The notes under the pieces were generated by a model. It was not told the DNA's origin. It saw nothing but the letters and a program-made list of their open reading frames with translations, and did not search any database. Made by a program: the position numbers and the translations under genes. From a virus, in IMG/VR virus record IMGVR_UViG_3300026488_000009, positions 1-33,533 of that record: a stretch of 33,533 nucleotides of DNA; one strand, 5' to 3'. The number at the start of each line of letters is the position of its first letter. Position 1 is the stretch's first letter. Of this stretch, positions 1,665-29,388 are shown piece by piece.

Positions 1665-4600
1665 TTAGTTCTCTCTCAATAAGTCCCTGTATTCCTGTAT
1701 TAGCTCCTTAATCTCTTTCCTATACTCCTCAGGGCTTATTTTACCTTTAGCCCTTAAAGCCCTAACCCTGTTAATCTTCTTTCTGATATCCAAGAGTTTT
1801 TCCTTCTTTGAGATAGCCTTAAAGGTTCTTAGCTCCTGGGTTGTGTATTCGTAAGTCGGAAAGCCAAATACACGAGGAAGTATAGGGTGGCGTGTTCTCT
1901 GTAAGTTCATTAAATTGGTAATTAGTCCAGGCATTATTGTCTGTTGCAGTATATACCATAGAACATTTGTAGCTACCTTACCTATGTATTTCGGATGCAA
2001 ACGAGAAGCTAAATAAGCGTCTGCTGGATCGTATATGTGCCTTCCAAACCTATCTTTATTGGCAAAGACCTGATAGAGCGTATAGGTAGGCAAGCCGAAT
2101 GCTCCAATATCCTTTAGAGCCTCTCCTCCTTTAAAGTGAACTAAATCGTCAACTGTATCAACTAACCAACCTTGAGGTATAACATAACTTAGCGGAATGT
2201 AATACCACCTTTTGCCGTCGTTGCTCCAGACAAGAGTCTGTTTTTCAGGTAGCCATTCAGGTTTATTCTTAAACGCCTCCTCTACCTTTTCTTTCCCGAA
2301 TTTCTCTTCTAGTTTTTTCTTTACTGTGTGAATAACGAGGTAAGGAAAAGCAAGGGTTAGCGTAGTCTGAACGGGCCTCTTTGTGAGAGCATAAACTAGT
2401 TGACTCCAAGACTTCTGCATATAGGTAGGGAATAGAGGAGCGAAGAGCTTTAAAGCTCCTCCGATGCCTACATTAGGATCTCTCATAGCCCTAACTAGAA
2501 CGCCGACAAGCGAGTAATCATAGTGAGCGTCTTGGGCTGTTTTAATTGCATCAGTTATACCTTTCTTTTCCCTTTCAAGGGCATAAATAAAGCGTGCAAG
2601 TTTCCAGGTGTCGTCAATAGCTGAGTAAAACTTTATCAGAGCTTCAGCAGGTTTAGACTGGTAGATTTCAGTTAGCTTTTTGAGATATTTATTTTTACTT
2701 GTGTCGTGAAGCTCCCTGATAACCCTTGCAACTTCCTCATCTGTAAAATTGGTGTGGAAAAGCCCTCTTTCCTTAGCTAGCTTATAGTAGCGTCCGTTAG
2801 TAGCTATCTCTCTTAAAGCCTTGCTGAAGTAGGTTAGAGGTCTATTAGCTCCGCTGTAATAATATTGGAATATGTTAGAGGTAAAGTTTCTAGGGACGGC
2901 AAACGGGTTAAGAGGCACTTTAGCAGTCTTAAATATAGCAGTCCAGACGGCCATCGTTTTATCAAAGGCGCTAACTAACCCGTCTGGGTCATCTGTTAAC
3001 CTCATAAATCCTTTCAACCAACCCGAAAACTTTCTATTAACTGGAAGCCCGGACAATACGCCGTATCTGAGCTTATCCTTATCTCCTAAACTAACCCAAC
3101 CTTCTCTTTCTAGTGCTTTTTTGTTTGCCTCTATTAGCTTTATTTTGCTGTTAGCTTCCTTAGCTAAACTTCTCAGGGTTTTAGTATCTACCCCTTCAGC
3201 CTGAAGCCATTTAATTAGCCTGTTTTTGACAAAGTAGGGAGAAGCCTCTTCAGGGAGTTTCGGGAACTTAGCCCTTATCTCTTTTGGAATCTTAACAACA
3301 AAACGCCTATCAACTATCTCAGGGATTTTGATTAAGTCCCTAAACCAGTAATCAAGCCCTACCGTTTTAGCTGATTTTGCTATTGTGTCCAGTATGGCAA
3401 TGGGAGCGTCCTCTACATAGCCCAGCTTCTCCCTCTTTTCTTTCGGTAGGGCCATTATGTTCTCTATCTTACGCCCGCTCTTAATTTCGGCCTGTTTGAA
3501 GCGTGAAAGGGCATCAAGCCCTACCTTCTCGTCAATCTGATAAAGCCTAGAAAGGTAGCGTCCCTTCCACTTGTTATACTGGTGTTTAGTGATGTATCCT
3601 CTTTCGTAGAGCTCCTTTGAGAGAACGTCTATATGATTTCCTACCTCGTCAAGTTTTTCGGCTATCTCTCTAAGCTCAGGCTCTTTTTGAGATGCTAGCT
3701 TTACCTTTTGTCTGAATCCTGGGCTTTCTAGATATTCTATAACAAAGCCGTGAGAGACCTTATCGCCCACCCATTTTCTAATAGCATCTACGTATCTATG
3801 CCCTCTTTCGGTATTGCTTGCAAAAACAGGCCTAGCTTTATCGTAAAGGCTGTAAACGATATTATCAGCCGTGTCCTCTTTTAAGAATCCCAGTCCGTAT
3901 TTATCAGCACCCAGATACTTTCTAAACAGTTGGCGTATGCTGTAAAAGAGTTTATTATCGCCTACTTTATTATCAATAGCTCTTATTACATCGTGAACGG
4001 CATCAAAGGCTTTAAATGGGTCAATGCCTGAGTGGAGGGTTGTTTCTTCGTTTTCTTTAATAGGTAAAAACCTATCGCCTATTTCTATTCCTTTGATGGG
4101 TTTATAGCTGGTTTTTATTTTATACCATTCTCTTTCTAAGCTATCCCATTTAAAACCATGCTGTTTAAGTATATCCTTAATAGGATAAGTGTTCCCTCTT
4201 ACATAAACATTATAATATTCTTTATCAAGTAGCAATCTGCCCTTTTTATCTTTCGGGATAAATCGCTCAACAACTATTTGAGCATCGCCAAGTTTCCCTT
4301 CCCATTTCTGTATCCATTCTTTTGTGCCATCATAGTTAACGGTTAATTCAATATCCAACTTGACATTAGGTTTAATTTCTCTAATAAGTTTTGGATATGC
4401 CGTATCGTCCTTTATTACTTTCCCTTTTACCCAAGTTTCGGGTAATTCTGTATCTTGAACAGGAGCATTAGTCTTTTCCAAAATCTCTTTAACCCTAGCT
4501 TTCTCATCTATCTCAGGCCTAATGTCCGAAATATCATCAACCTCATTAGCATCAACTTCTTTTGGAGGCTCTTTTTCTCTAACCCTCTGAGCTATTTCCC

Positions 4601-5570
4601 TTACCTTTTGCTCCCAGAGCTTTTTGTCTTTCTGGAGTTTGTTGGCTATTTTTTCTCTCAATTCCTCTTTTGTAGGCTGTGCAGGTCTGATATCATCAAT
4701 AGGCTCTGCTATATCTTCCGTAATCTTCGGAGGTTCTTTCTCCCTAACCTTAGTAATAACCTGCTTCTTAAACCCTTCCCATTCTTTTCTCTTAATATCG
4801 TCAACCTGTTTTAACCCTTTCGCTATAAACTCAGCTTTATTTTTCCTATATTCCTCTTTAAGCGTTCTAGCTACCTTGAGGCCTTCAGCTATGGCTTTTG
4901 CCTTATCCTTATCTCCAGACTTAACAGCCTCTTTGTAAGCTGTTTTAATCTCCTGCTCTACTCCATCTATTAGCTTATCTACATCGTCAATAGTAATGGT
5001 CTTTTTACTCCCGATTTCAGCTACAGTCTTTTTAGCTAGCCTACTCTTTAAACCCTCTACCACTTCTTTTGGGAGTTTGTTGGTTAACTTATCTGCAAAG
5101 TGTCCAACAATAAAACTAAAGGCTACATCAGCGGGAATCTTAACTACATCGGGAAGTCTATTCCTAACTGTGTTTTCATAAGCAGTAAAAGCCTCTCCAA
5201 GTATCGGTTCAGAAGCTAAGGCTGATACTGCACCCTTTACTATCCCTTTAACTCCTCCTGATGCTCCACCGAAAGCACCACCTACAACCGCAGTTTCAGG
5301 CTGTATATTAGACTCTACAACCCCTCCAGCCCCAGCAAACTTACTGATTATTTGCTTATAATAAGGCTTTAGGCTGGGAGTATTTTTCACCATATCGTCT
5401 AAAAACATTAAGAGCTGGTCGCCGTGCAGGTTTTGAACTTTCTCTTTTATCTTAGGAGCATAAGGCTTAAGTTCAGGAACTTTCTCTGATGCCTCTAGGA
5501 GGAATTGTTTTAAGCTGTCTTGAGTGTCTTTAACCTGCTTGCCCTCGTCAAATATATCTAGAATACCCAT
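1665..5570 (-). CDS. very large internal virion / polyvalent ejection protein
   Basis: A 1301-residue protein, the largest in the genome. The N-terminus is helical and contains a Gly/Ala-rich stretch near residues 85-125 that could insert into or cross membranes. Residues of about 150-370 are Lys/Glu-rich coiled coil with a repeated VREKEPPK module. The C-terminal third has hydrophobic segments such as LFAPLFPTYMQKSW, resembling the associated domains of large phage polyvalent proteins (LPD38-like, low certainty). Size, helical content and position at the end of the structural genes suggest a protein ejected with the DNA, like internal core proteins of short-tailed phages. No catalytic motif was identified. 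Confidence 0.7.
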   Translation of the reverse strand: MGILDIFDEGKQVKDTQDSLKQFLLEASEKVPELKPYAPKIKEKVQNLHGDQLLMFLDDMVKNTPSLKPYYKQIISKFAGAGGVVESNIQPETAVVGGAFGGASGGVKGIVKGAVSALASEPILGEAFTAYENTVRNRLPDVVKIPADVAFSFIVGHFADKLTNKLPKEVVEGLKSRLAKKTVAEIGSKKTITIDDVDKLIDGVEQEIKTAYKEAVKSGDKDKAKAIAEGLKVARTLKEEYRKNKAEFIAKGLKQVDDIKRKEWEGFKKQVITKVREKEPPKITEDIAEPIDDIRPAQPTKEELREKIANKLQKDKKLWEQKVREIAQRVREKEPPKEVDANEVDDISDIRPEIDEKARVKEILEKTNAPVQDTELPETWVKGKVIKDDTAYPKLIREIKPNVKLDIELTVNYDGTKEWIQKWEGKLGDAQIVVERFIPKDKKGRLLLDKEYYNVYVRGNTYPIKDILKQHGFKWDSLEREWYKIKTSYKPIKGIEIGDRFLPIKENEETTLHSGIDPFKAFDAVHDVIRAIDNKVGDNKLFYSIRQLFRKYLGADKYGLGFLKEDTADNIVYSLYDKARPVFASNTERGHRYVDAIRKWVGDKVSHGFVIEYLESPGFRQKVKLASQKEPELREIAEKLDEVGNHIDVLSKELYERGYITKHQYNKWKGRYLSRLYQIDEKVGLDALSRFKQAEIKSGRKIENIMALPKEKREKLGYVEDAPIAILDTIAKSAKTVGLDYWFRDLIKIPEIVDRRFVVKIPKEIRAKFPKLPEEASPYFVKNRLIKWLQAEGVDTKTLRSLAKEANSKIKLIEANKKALEREGWVSLGDKDKLRYGVLSGLPVNRKFSGWLKGFMRLTDDPDGLVSAFDKTMAVWTAIFKTAKVPLNPFAVPRNFTSNIFQYYYSGANRPLTYFSKALREIATNGRYYKLAKERGLFHTNFTDEEVARVIRELHDTSKNKYLKKLTEIYQSKPAEALIKFYSAIDDTWKLARFIYALEREKKGITDAIKTAQDAHYDYSLVGVLVRAMRDPNVGIGGALKLFAPLFPTYMQKSWSQLVYALTKRPVQTTLTLAFPYLVIHTVKKKLEEKFGKEKVEEAFKNKPEWLPEKQTLVWSNDGKRWYYIPLSYVIPQGWLVDTVDDLVHFKGGEALKDIGAFGLPTYTLYQVFANKDRFGRHIYDPADAYLASRLHPKYIGKVATNVLWYILQQTIMPGLITNLMNLQRTRHPILPRVFGFPTYEYTTQELRTFKAISKKEKLLDIRKKINRVRALRAKGKISPEEYRKEIKELIQEYRDLLREN

Positions 5571-5571
5571 T

Positions 5572-6675
5572 CTATTCCCCTAAGATTCCCCAATTTTTAA
5601 GAAAGGCCTTAGTTTCGTCTGGAGTTGAAAGGTTTAAAGATTGGCTCTTTTGAGCATTCTCAATACCGAGCTGTTTATTAGTTAACCTCTTCCTCTGCTC
5701 GTAAAGCCATTCTAACCTTTTAGCATCCTCAATAGCCTCAGGGCCTCCAGTCTGGGCAATTAAGTTAACGATGTTCTGAACAGCTTTAGGGTCATCACTT
5801 CCTAAAAGCATCATACTATCAAGCCTATACTTTTTCATCAGCTTGTTAATCTCACCATCTACCGCCTTAATCTTCTTGTCAAGCTCATTAATCTGTCGTT
5901 GTGCTTTCTGCTTCTGTATCTCGTTGCGTTCTTTCTGAATCTTGAGGTTCTCCGTCTTATACCACTTATCTAGGTCTAATTCTTTTGTCTCCTTAAGCCT
6001 ACGCCAATTAAACTTCTTAACCTCAAGCCCGTATTTCTTTTTGGCTAACCTCAGCTTCTCCCTTGCCTCTGGGGAAAGGCCAACCACAAACTCTTGAGGA
6101 ATGATGCTTTTTATCTGTTTTCCGTCGTTAACAATAAGGAGAGGAACTTTACGGTCTCCTAAGTCTAGAACTTGGAACTTCTCTAGTTTGGGTTGCTGGG
6201 GCTTAGGAGGAGAAGGTAGCCTTCCTGTTAAAACAAAGATAGACCTAGCGTAAGGAGTAAGCTCCCCATAAACCTTATCAAAAGGCCCTTTCCAGTCTTG
6301 GGTCATATCAAGGTAAGCCCCGAAAGTTTCGGGCTTAACGCTTGATAATAGGCCTATATTATCGCTAGGAGTATAACCCAACTCACTCTCAGCTATACTT
6401 CCGAAATCAGAAGCATTTAGTCCATATTTATCGGGATTAAGAATAGGACGGTTATCTATGTAGGTTGGAGAGTTGAGCCTATCAAACCATTGAGCCCTTC
6501 TCTGAAGTTCAGCATTTGCAAGCTCTTGCTCTATCTCAGCCTGTTTTCTCATTCTATCAATAGCTAGCTTATTCTGAAGTTCCATCATTTTCTTTTTATA
6601 AGCCTCCTCTAGTCCCGAAAGGAGACCTCTGGTAAACATATCAGACCATATAGCCTCTCTTGACTGTAAAATCAT
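5572..6675 (-). CDS. coiled-coil structural/internal virion protein, unknown
   Basis: A 367-residue protein, not recognised. The N-terminal 65 residues and a long segment at about 225-350 are Lys/Glu/Gln-rich and predicted helical. A Pro-rich spacer (PSPPKPQQPK) lies near residue 150. The ATG overlaps the stop of nothing upstream but forms an ATGA junction with the preceding gene (6672-6675), and the next gene starts one base after its stop, so translation is probably coupled. Its place between tail-associated genes and the giant internal protein suggests it is a second ejection or internal core component. Confidence 0.6.
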   Translation of the reverse strand: MILQSREAIWSDMFTRGLLSGLEEAYKKKMMELQNKLAIDRMRKQAEIEQELANAELQRRAQWFDRLNSPTYIDNRPILNPDKYGLNASDFGSIAESELGYTPSDNIGLLSSVKPETFGAYLDMTQDWKGPFDKVYGELTPYARSIFVLTGRLPSPPKPQQPKLEKFQVLDLGDRKVPLLIVNDGKQIKSIIPQEFVVGLSPEAREKLRLAKKKYGLEVKKFNWRRLKETKELDLDKWYKTENLKIQKERNEIQKQKAQRQINELDKKIKAVDGEINKLMKKYRLDSMMLLGSDDPKAVQNIVNLIAQTGGPEAIEDAKRLEWLYEQRKRLTNKQLGIENAQKSQSLNLSTPDETKAFLKNWGILGE

Positions 6676-26770: not shown

Positions 26771-27210
26771 GGGTAAAGAAATTAGACCCACGAGCAAAAC
26801 TTCCGACGCTAGCTTATGAAAGGGCGTTAGGCTACGACCTTTATGCCCTTGAAGATATAGAGATTCCCGCCGTTAGTGAGGATGGCGGGATAGGGATGGC
26901 AAAGGTAAGGACGGGGATTGTCATTGAGCTTCCACCAATGTGGGGAGCTTTTATTAAAGATAGGTCGTCAATCGCTACTAAGCGTAGGTTGGTTTGTATC
27001 GCTGGGGTGATTGACCCTGATTATAGAGGGGAAATAATCGTTTGCCTTGAGAATCATTCAGGAAGGATACAGAAAATCAAGGCTGGGGAGAAAATAGCCC
27101 AGCTAGTTCCTATCCCTGTTTTGGGTGCTCCGGTGATAGAGACTGAGGAGTTATCGGGAACTAAAAGAGGAGCTAACGGCTTTGGAAGTTCTAATAAAGG
27201 AGGTGAATAA
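26767..27210 (+). CDS. dut: dUTP diphosphatase
   Basis: A 147-residue trimeric-type dUTPase with all five motifs: LGYDLYA (21-27), DRSSIA (65-70), GVIDPDYRGEI (80-90, Asp83 the likely catalytic base), GEKIAQL (107-113) and RGANGFGS (134-141). It converts dUTP to dUMP and diphosphate, keeping uracil out of phage DNA and supplying substrate for the ThyX encoded downstream. Motif 5 is followed by a short tail. Good GGAGGAGG before the ATG; the stop overlaps the next start. Confidence 0.96.
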   Translation: MRVKKLDPRAKLPTLAYERALGYDLYALEDIEIPAVSEDGGIGMAKVRTGIVIELPPMWGAFIKDRSSIATKRRLVCIAGVIDPDYRGEIIVCLENHSGRIQKIKAGEKIAQLVPIPVLGAPVIETEELSGTKRGANGFGSSNKGGE

Positions 27211-28013
27211 TGGAAGTTAAGACTGTTGAAGAAGTGAAAATCAAAGTAGCCGAAGAGATGCAGAAGAGATGGCTTGATTTAAGCCAAATCAAAGGATGGC
27301 TAAACGGCCATAAAGGGATTCCTCAAGAGGCTCAGGAGCAGATAGCTGAGCAGATTAAGGCCCTCTTTGCTGAATACGGTCTACGCCCAGATTTAGGCCA
27401 TATCGTAGTTTTGGGCGATAGGCCATATGTAACAAGGGAGGGCTTACTCTACTATGCACGCAAAAGCGGTCAACTTCAAGGTATTAAGGTAGAGATAGTT
27501 GAGCGTCAAAAAGATTTTTGTTTAGTAAAAGCTACCGTCTTAACTAAAGACGGCGGAGAATTTGAGGCTTATGGGGATGCCTCTACGAGCAATACTAATA
27601 GGATGGTTAGCCCTCACCTTATCAGGATGGCTGAAACGAGGGCTATAAACAGAGCTCTTAGAGAGGCCTTCCCAATAGGTTTATGTAGCTACGAGGAACT
27701 TGGGGAGGCTGATATAGACATATCAGTAGAGCCTGCTGCAAGCGAACCGAATTCTCCTTCTCCTTCTCCTACTAAAACTTCAAACAGAGGGGTTAGTAGG
27801 AAACAGATAGGGTACATAAAGAAGCTCCTTAAGGAAGTTTTTGGGGAGAAGGCAGAGGAGGAAGGTAAGAGAATGATTGCTGTTTACGGTAAATCTTCCT
27901 CAAAGGAGCTTACCTCTAAGGAGGCATCGGAGATTATTGACACACTTAAAAAGCTAAAGGAAAACAAGGAGAAAAAGGAAGGAGGCGGAGAGTATGACTA
28001 CGATTTTGAATAG
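27210..28013 (+). CDS. single-strand-annealing-type recombinase (ERF/Rad52-like)
   Basis: A 267-residue protein. The core (residues of about 40-165) has the beta-sheet/helix pattern GDRPYVTREGLLYYARKSG, KATVLTKDGGEFEAYGDAS, and the helix HLIRMAETRAINRALREAF (137-154), a signature of phage annealing proteins of the ERF/Rad52 superfamily. The tail (about 192-255) carries a RKQIGYIKKLLKE ... LTSKEASEIIDTL motif frequent at the C-termini of phage recombination proteins. Role: annealing of single strands in replication and repair. It overlaps the dut stop by one base. Exact family uncertain. Confidence 0.75.
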   Translation: MEVKTVEEVKIKVAEEMQKRWLDLSQIKGWLNGHKGIPQEAQEQIAEQIKALFAEYGLRPDLGHIVVLGDRPYVTREGLLYYARKSGQLQGIKVEIVERQKDFCLVKATVLTKDGGEFEAYGDASTSNTNRMVSPHLIRMAETRAINRALREAFPIGLCSYEELGEADIDISVEPAASEPNSPSPSPTKTSNRGVSRKQIGYIKKLLKEVFGEKAEEEGKRMIAVYGKSSSKELTSKEASEIIDTLKKLKENKEKKEGGGEYDYDFE

Positions 28014-28080: not shown

Positions 28081-28129
28081 TTAGAGGTTTGGATTTCAAG
28101 GAGGGCCCCCACCCTCCTTGAACCTCTAA
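28081..28129 (+). ncRNA. compound RNA hairpin between recombinase and RAMP-like genes
   Basis: An inner 11-bp stem TTCAAGGAGGG/CCCTCCTTGAA (28095-28105 with 28112-28122) lies inside an outer stem TTAGAGGT/ACCTCTAA (28081-28088 with 28122-28129), with a one-sided bulge. No T-tract follows. The inner arm contains an AAGGAGG sequence held in duplex. Upstream, TGGACT/AGTCCA words can also pair. Could be a processing site or attenuator. Confidence 0.55.
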
Positions 28130-28161: not shown

Positions 28162-28899
28162 ATGCGAAGTCTTATTCAAGATAGAAAAAAAGTAGTTTTG
28201 CGATTTATTAGGGATGTACTTGGAGTAGCCCCAAGCTCCCCTCAAATTTACGAGAGGTATCTCCTTGAAAAGCTCAATAAGGAGATAGACAAGATAGAGC
28301 GGAAGCTAGCGAAAAAGAACTTGAGAGAAGAGGAAAGGGCAATACTTGAGAATCAATTAAGGAGCTTGCAGGATGAGTTAGCTAATTTACCAGAAGTTGT
28401 AGAAAATACGGAGAAAGCTACTCAGTTTTACAGAGCTCCTTATGGAGAGTATGAAGTCCCCGTAATCCGAGCCCACCAGGTTCAGGGGTTTTTCAAAGAG
28501 GCGGGCAATAACTTCAAGGATGTATTTAAAATCAAGGCTCTAAGGGACAAAATAAGCAAGTATGTCCGGGTTCAACCCATCAACTTATTTATTTACGACG
28601 AGGAGATAAAGCCTGAAAACCTGGTTGATGAACCTGATGGATTCCTTGAGCGTCCTTTACAAGCCATGACCCCGCAAGGGCCTAGAGTATCAATAGCAAA
28701 ATCGGAGGTTATCTATTCAAACGAAGAGAAAGGTTTTAAGCTAATAGAGTTTGAGGTAATCCTGTTTAAGAATCCTCACTTTGACTTTTCGCTACTTGAA
28801 ACGCTTATGAGAGAACTAGGGCCTTACGGTGGAATAGGACGATGGAGGAATGCGGGCTACGGGGCGTTTGAGGTTGTTAAAATAGAAGATGTTAAGTAA
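28162..28899 (+). CDS. phage protein with RAMP (Cas7-like) sequence features
   Basis: A 245-residue protein. Seen: a VPVIRAHQVQGFFKEA block (99-114), comparable to the IPGSSLKG-type block of Cas7/Csm3; ERPLQAMTPQGPRVSIAKSE (163-182); and a C-terminal glycine-rich loop GGIGRWRNAGYGAFEV (223-238) of the kind that marks RAMP-fold proteins. From memory, related phage proteins of unknown function share these blocks. No CRISPR array or other Cas gene is nearby. It sits between an annealing protein and a 5/6-base periodic DNA track. A nucleic-acid-binding, filament-forming role is inference. Start ATG after AAAGGAGGGG. Confidence 0.6.
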   Translation: MRSLIQDRKKVVLRFIRDVLGVAPSSPQIYERYLLEKLNKEIDKIERKLAKKNLREEERAILENQLRSLQDELANLPEVVENTEKATQFYRAPYGEYEVPVIRAHQVQGFFKEAGNNFKDVFKIKALRDKISKYVRVQPINLFIYDEEIKPENLVDEPDGFLERPLQAMTPQGPRVSIAKSEVIYSNEEKGFKLIEFEVILFKNPHFDFSLLETLMRELGPYGGIGRWRNAGYGAFEVVKIEDVK

Positions 28900-29364
28900 T
28901 GGCGTTGTTATGCAAGACGCAGTAGTGGTGCAGTGGAGCAGAACGAGGCGTTGTAATGGTGTGGCAAAGTGAGGCTGGGTTTTGGTTAAGCTGGGCCACG
29001 CGGAGGCGGTGCTGGGGTAAGCCGGGTTTCGGTTAAGCACAGAGTGGCCGAGTAATGGCAAGGCTTCCTATGGCTTTGTGCTGGTATGGCTTTGCCGTGT
29101 ATTGGTTAGGTCAAGTAGGGCGACGGCCGAGTAGAGCACGGTTCTGTCAAGCAGAGGCAAGGCGGAGCAAGGCAAACCCAAGTAAAGGCGGGGTTGGGCA
29201 AGGTTAGGGCACGGCCGAGCAGAGAACCGCTTCGGCAAAGGCGATGTCCAGCTTTTCTATGCACAGGCACAGCGGTGAACTGCTTAGCATCGGCACAGTA
29301 GAGAACTGCGTCGGCTAGGTATGGCAGTGTTTAGTGCGGGTGTGGCCCAGCCTAGTTGCGTGTT
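28899..29364 (+). repeat. degenerate pentamer track (NNRGY, with interspersed hexamers)
   Basis: From the stop of the RAMP-like gene, the sequence splits almost throughout into five-base units of the form NNRGY (for example atGGC, aaGGC, ggAGC, aaAGT), interrupted by six-base units NNNGGY. The hexamers recur at intervals of 5n+1 bases (11, 21, 26, 31 or 41), which keeps the G-Y at the unit end. There are about 90 units. It is visibly richer in GC than the neighbouring genes, and stop codons are frequent in plus-strand frames, so it is not coding. Its function is unknown. Confidence 0.85.
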
Positions 29365-29388
29365 GGGGGCTATGCCCCCTCTTCTTTA
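29365..29388 (+). terminator. hairpin before thyX, possible terminator
   Basis: GGGGGC, loop TAT, GCCCCC, then TCTTCTTTAA. The stem is short but all GC, and the T-tract is imperfect. It closes the pentamer track 24 bases before the ThyX ATG. Confidence 0.45.

What the first reader, a model, noticed from the sequence alone, without database searches (positions are those of the whole stretch)
28899..29364. Non-coding track with a strict 5-base rhythm (NNRGY) and in-phase hexamers
About 90 consecutive units read NNRGY, and six-base NNNGGY units are inserted so that distances between hexamers are always 5n+1. A compositional bias alone would not keep this register for 466 bases. The region is GC-rich, carries stop codons in plus frames, and ends at a hairpin. 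A function for this in recombination, packaging or as an RNA is not described to my knowledge. I recall GGCAAGGC-like tracts in other phages near recombinase genes, but cannot verify that here.
Basis: partly seen in the sequence, partly recalled or inferred. Interest (0 to 1): 0.88.

Follow-up and report, generated by a model that had tools for sequence, protein, structure and literature searches.

The report
Phage VIPR-type guide RNA array
The odd five-base rhythm is most likely a long guide-RNA array sitting beside a Cas7-like (Vipr) gene in a virus of bacteria; it belongs to the recently described VIPR class that phages use against rival phages, and it differs from the best-studied examples in being punctuated every 26 to 36 bases by a six-base unit.

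Summary
The period-5 track is real: segmentation score 37 against a shuffled mean of -19 and maximum of -5. Its rule is one conserved G followed by a non-G every 5 bases, with a doubled G in the 6-base units; 'strict NNRGY' holds for about 70% of units. Directly upstream lies an unannotated 245-aa gene (28162-28899) that folds like Cas7/Csm3 (Z 12.8). Of 183 non-duplicate relatives of this gene, in phages and prophages of many bacterial phyla, 175 carry the same kind of track beside the gene on the same strand. The preprint PMC13142463 (April/June 2026) describes exactly this pairing as VIPR: a phage RAMP protein plus RNAs of alternating GGY/NN that recognise DNA non-contiguously and repress competing phages. 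I file this as a VIPR system, not of the characterised SUSP1 type. Its array is continuous, has no interspersed tails, and is punctuated by hexamers spaced by 4-6 pentamers, far from random. I found no natural targets in 4.7 Mb searched (both strands counted), so the decoding rule and target are untested for this subfamily. Whether the punctuated form is already in the preprint's supplement could not be checked.

The parts
28095..28122 (+). 11-bp hairpin followed by a T-rich run: likely terminator of the upstream (RecT-like) unit, setting off the vipr-array cassette
28162..28899 (+). vipr-like gene, 245 aa, RAMP/Cas7 fold; extra helical insertion at residues 27-74 shared in the alignment with Hydrogenobaculum phage 1 and absent from gut relatives
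28891..29369 (+). punctuated period-5 array (putative vrRNA array): pentamers Y-N-N-R-G and hexamers Y-N-N-N-G-G; begins at the stop codon of the gene
29365..29380 (+). intrinsic-terminator-like hairpin at the 3' end of the array
   Evidence: a similar G-rich hairpin ends the shorter array of the sibling phage in L222

Best explanation
The track is a non-coding RNA array transcribed with, or just after, the gene in front of it. The gene makes a small Cas7-like RAMP protein (Vipr). Copies of the protein line up along the RNA, each gripping one 5-base unit through its conserved G and neighbouring base; the hypervariable bases between the grips are presented as a gapped guide that pairs with double-stranded DNA of competing phages or other mobile elements, blocking their transcription. 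Shown here: the track, its grammar, near-constant linkage and co-orientation with the gene, the Cas7-type fold, remote homology to the SUSP1 Vipr, conservation of G against fast-changing N, and a terminator after the array. Inferred from the published system: transcription and processing, RNA binding, the gapped code, repression of rivals. My own inference: hexamers, spaced by 4-6 pentamers, mark repeated sub-modules of 26-36 bases (processing sites, or one register correction per helical turn of the filament).
For: Same grammar learned independently from five tracts. 175 of 183 non-duplicate loci have a tract within 700 nt of the gene, all on the gene's strand; median distance 27.5 nt; 61 upstream, 114 downstream. 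AF2 model pLDDT 90; best solved matches are type III Cas7/Csm3 and type VII Cas7, Z 12.2-12.8; profile search of the PDB puts type VII Cas7 and Csm4 first (E 5e-4 and 3.5e-3). Profile-profile match to the SUSP1-type Vipr family, E 1.5e-5, probability 80%, over the G-loop half. G positions change about four times less than N positions between related arrays (0.04 against 0.14-0.17). Sibling phage with the same neighbour (ThyX) has a different array with the same grammar. Hexamer spacing far from geometric: 848 and 798 gaps of 4 and 5 pentamers against 232 and 191 expected. Published mechanism: PMC13142463.
Against: No target found: decoding with 0-3 skipped bases gave no excess over shuffled units in the fetched loci. 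The units are less regular than the published YNNGG and no invariant 3' tail is seen. No conserved accessory (vap) gene. No expression data. hhalign probability to the SUSP1 family is only 80%.
Confidence: 0.85

Rival explanations
1. The array is a titration sponge or decoy: Vipr, or a host RNA-binding protein, binds the G-containing units in many copies and the variable bases carry no information (as GGA motifs in CsrB-type RNAs do for CsrA).
For: Many near-identical protein-contact motifs and an array length that varies widely, median 544 nt, up to 1845 nt; no target found.
Against: A Cas7-fold partner that in VIPR uses such RNA as a guide (PMC13142463); the variable positions are near maximal entropy and are wholly different between sibling phages, as guides are.
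Confidence: 0.08
2. The track is a DNA-level element, such as a loading, annealing or packaging site for a recombinase with a 5-base step (RecT-like annealing protein encoded at 27210-28013).
For: A RecT-like gene lies upstream (phrog_10056 E 1.3e-4); the 5-nt step of RecT-family filaments is from memory, not tested.
Against: RecT-like genes are near only some loci; the Cas7-like gene is the near-constant partner, and the strand is always that of the gene, which a DNA site would not require.
Confidence: 0.03
3. A VIPR relative that acts on RNA rather than DNA (type III-like), binding target transcripts through the same gapped code.
For: Closest solved folds are RNA-targeting type III Csm3 and type VII Cas7.
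Against: Characterised VIPR binds double-stranded DNA and silences with either strand targeted (PMC13142463).
Confidence: 0.1

Closest known systems
VIPR systems (Viral Interference Programmable Repeat), PMC13142463 / doi 10.64898/2026.04.26.720920
   Same: Phage-encoded small RAMP protein; flanking non-coding array of pentanucleotide units with conserved G-containing motif and hypervariable bases; array upstream or downstream of the gene; minimal locus
   Different: Characterised SUSP1-type RNAs are 9-16 pure YNNGG units plus an invariant tail, about 100 nt each. Here the array is continuous (about 92 units), the first G is relaxed to R, hexamers recur every 5-7 units, and no tail is seen. 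Main text mentions 'a related consensus' (fig. [quoted passage not shown] S18), which may be this form; the supplement was not readable here
SUSP1-type Vipr in Escherichia phage SUSP1 (likely ALH47069, KT454805) and Gordonia, Mycobacterium, Pseudomonas, Vibrio phages
   Same: C-terminal G-loop half aligns; GGY/NN or GCA/NN arrays flank the gene
   Different: Separate short arrays, hexamers only at array ends in SUSP1; about 20% identity to the window protein
Type III and type VII CRISPR Cas7 backbone proteins (Csm3, type VII Cas7)
   Same: Fold (Z 12-13), glycine-rich C-terminal motif
   Different: No CRISPR array or other cas gene seen in the window; guide units are 5-6 nt with internal variable bases, not repeat-spacer

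Membership tests
VIPR (system as a whole) | Small RAMP protein with RRM core and G-loop | tested here: met
   Pfam RAMPs E 0.0028, below its cut-off; AF2 model and PDB matches; G-loop motif GIGxWRN..G conserved in the alignment. Thumb not examined separately
VIPR (system as a whole) | Homology to the described Vipr protein | tested here: met
   hhalign of 42-row family against 7-row SUSP1-type family, E 1.5e-5, probability 80%; remote. The SUSP1 gene was identified by me from its flanking arrays, not from an accession in the paper
VIPR (system as a whole) | Flanking non-coding array of pentanucleotide units with conserved motif and hypervariable bases | tested here: met
VIPR (system as a whole) | Consensus GGY/NN or a related consensus | tested here: inconclusive
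   Window is R-G-Y/NN with hexamers; gut relatives are nearer GCA/NN. Limits of 'related consensus' are in a supplement not readable here
VIPR (system as a whole) | Encoded mainly by phages or proviruses | tested here: met
   Window is a virus record with terminase and other phage genes; 332 and 329 relatives in IMG/VR scans
VIPR (system as a whole) | Accessory vap gene, typical but not stated as obligatory | tested here: inconclusive
   No protein family other than the Cas7-like gene is shared by most loci
VIPR (system as a whole) | Gapped DNA recognition, xNN with one skipped base | tested here: inconclusive
   No excess of gapped matches over shuffled units in the 4.7 Mb searched, both strands counted; true targets may lie outside
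VIPR (system as a whole) | RNA expressed and bound by Vipr | not testable with these tools
   needs RNA-seq and pull-down
VIPR type II (SUSP1 / P. fulva clade) | 9-16 YNNGG units followed by an invariant structured 3' tail | tested here: not met
   Array is continuous, about 92 units with hexamers, only a terminator hairpin at the end. So not filed under this type
CRISPR-Cas | Array of long identical direct repeats with unique spacers | tested here: not met
   No tandem-repeat array reported over the track; structure is 5/6-base units

The most novel reading that the evidence does not exclude
A two-level guide array: 5-base units carry the guide, and a more conserved hexamer, consensus CAANGG in gut phages, punctuates it every 4-6 units, acting as a processing signal or as a once-per-turn register correction of the Vipr filament, so that one continuous transcript yields many overlapping guides. 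This would be a VIPR variant with its own decoding rule.
Probability: 0.4. Interest if true: 0.75.

Novelty: new member of a known kind. Interest (0 to 1): 0.58.

Why it matters
VIPR is proposed as an RNA-guided system that predates CRISPR and reads DNA with a gapped code. This report shows that a large subfamily, with more than 300 virus records in IMG/VR and with relatives in genomes of several bacterial phyla, keeps the Vipr-plus-array pairing but uses a punctuated array. That gives a natural experiment on which parts of the code are fixed, and it explains an unannotated repeat type found in many gut and rumen phages.

Tried and rejected
Coding: the track carries stops in plus frames and no ORF of 80 aa or more lies within it on the plus strand. 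Tandem Repeats Finder reports nothing there. Rfam: no family over the tracks, so no hammerhead at the gathering threshold in the loci scanned. Secondary structure: z -1.76 for the whole track, not a strongly folded RNA. Target search: subsets of variable positions, skips 0-3, three hexamer offsets, windows of 8, 14 and 30 units, shuffled-unit controls; no consistent excess. The 28/28 and 60/60 hits at skip 3 with hexamer offset 1 use the track's own 5/6-base spacing, so I take them to be copies of tracks left unmasked; this was not traced hit by hit. Some 30-unit settings exceeded their single shuffle by a few fold at scores near the noise; the hits I inspected at 14 units were low-complexity. 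One SUSP1 guide decoded by the 1-nt rule and scanned exactly in IMG/VR gave no hit, so exact scans have little power. The first target script timed out. A blastn query of degenerate GGC repeats found nothing, as expected for such a query. RecT-type recombination and packaging roles rejected on linkage.

Full report
What is there. In 28899-29364 the best parse into NNRGY and NNNGGY units scores 37, against a shuffled mean of -19.5 (sd 4.5, maximum -5 of 1000), and nothing else in the window comes near (-28 at best). Autocorrelation peaks at 5, 10, 16, 21, 26 and 31. A hidden Markov model trained without any prior motif learns: G, then C or T, then three variable bases, with an optional second G. 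The strict NNRGY wording holds for about 70% of units; the G and the following non-G are the firm part.

The gene in front. The 245-aa ORF at 28162-28899 ends where the track begins. It has a sub-threshold Pfam RAMP match, a sub-threshold NCBIfam Csm4 match, and a confident AF2 model (pLDDT 90) whose best solved neighbours are Cas7-type backbone proteins, Csm3 and type VII Cas7, at Z 12-13. A terminator-like hairpin at 28095-28122 and another at 29365-29380 set gene and track apart as one unit.

The pair travels together. Relatives at about 30% identity in gut phages and in Hydrogenobaculum phage 1 have a track of the same grammar right after the gene, or in MT835477 right before it. Scans with an alignment found 332 and 329 relatives in IMG/VR and 51 matching stretches (50 loci) in GTDB genomes. 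In 183 non-duplicate loci, 175 have a track within 700 nt, on the gene's strand. Of the eight without one, L010 and L134 are cut off at the contig end, L079, L121 and L128 have weak tracks under the threshold, and in L025 the strong track lies farther away, by a second Vipr. The sibling phage IMGVR 3300037333_000117 keeps gene, array, hairpin and ThyX in order, but its array is shorter and of different sequence.

Constraint. Between related arrays the G changes at 0.04 per site against 0.14-0.17 at the variable sites (pairs are not independent). This is what a protein-contact G with free guide bases would give.

What it is. PMC13142463, a bioRxiv preprint of April 2026 (version 2, June 2026), describes VIPR: a phage RAMP protein, Vipr, and vrRNAs of alternating GGY/NN that recognise DNA through the NN bases with one skipped base per unit, and repress rival phages. 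In SUSP1 the likely vipr is ALH47069; its flanks carry pure YNNGG runs. My family matches the SUSP1-type family by profile comparison, E 1.5e-5, probability 80%. L025 carries both kinds: a SUSP1-type Vipr with a pure YNNGG block, and a window-type Vipr. So I file the window as a VIPR system, though not of type II.

What differs. In 159 tracks, 3222 hexamers lie among 15120 pentamers. Gaps between hexamers cluster at 4-6 pentamers (848, 798 and 400 against 232, 191 and 158 expected), so modules are 26-36 nt. In 140 of 157 tracks the hexamer's variable bases are less free than the pentamer's; in gut phages the hexamer is CAANGG. In the window the hexamer bases are only slightly less free. Arrays are continuous with no interspersed tails. 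The preprint's main text mentions a related consensus and staggered overlapping arrays, which may cover this; I could not read its supplement.

Function. The guide role is inferred. My own search for gapped targets, in 4.7 Mb (both strands counted) of phage and prophage DNA fetched here, found no consistent excess over controls for any rule. This does not argue strongly against guides, since published targets were found in a pan-genome and mostly in satellites and prophages, but it leaves the rule for this subfamily open.

Noticed in passing
L025:1256-2187 and 3151-3876: One phage contig (IMGVR 3300013426_000044) carries two Vipr proteins of different families, a SUSP1-type one near a pure YNNGG block and a window-type one at 5001-5588.
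   Followed up: partly
L005:3911-4598: Hydrogenobaculum phage 1 (KP282676) has an unannotated array; the annotated CDS ALG96926 (L005 4146-4316) lies inside it and is probably not a gene.
   Followed up: no
L143:6117-6650, L071:2633-3146, L142:11856-12079: Second arrays of the same grammar away from the recognised vipr gene (about 1.2 to 4 kb) in the same contigs, with no second vipr found beside them.
   Followed up: partly
window:28162-28899, residues 27-74: Two long helices inserted in the Vipr of the window; the alignment shows the same insertion in Hydrogenobaculum phage 1 and not in gut relatives; role unknown.
   Followed up: no
L198, L183, L168: Very long arrays of 1.3 to 1.8 kb next to the vipr gene.
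   Followed up: no
window:21009-21057: AT-rich 9/18-base tandem repeat (ACTTAAGTATTTTAAAAG) between the divergent gene blocks; may be an operator or origin element.
   Followed up: no
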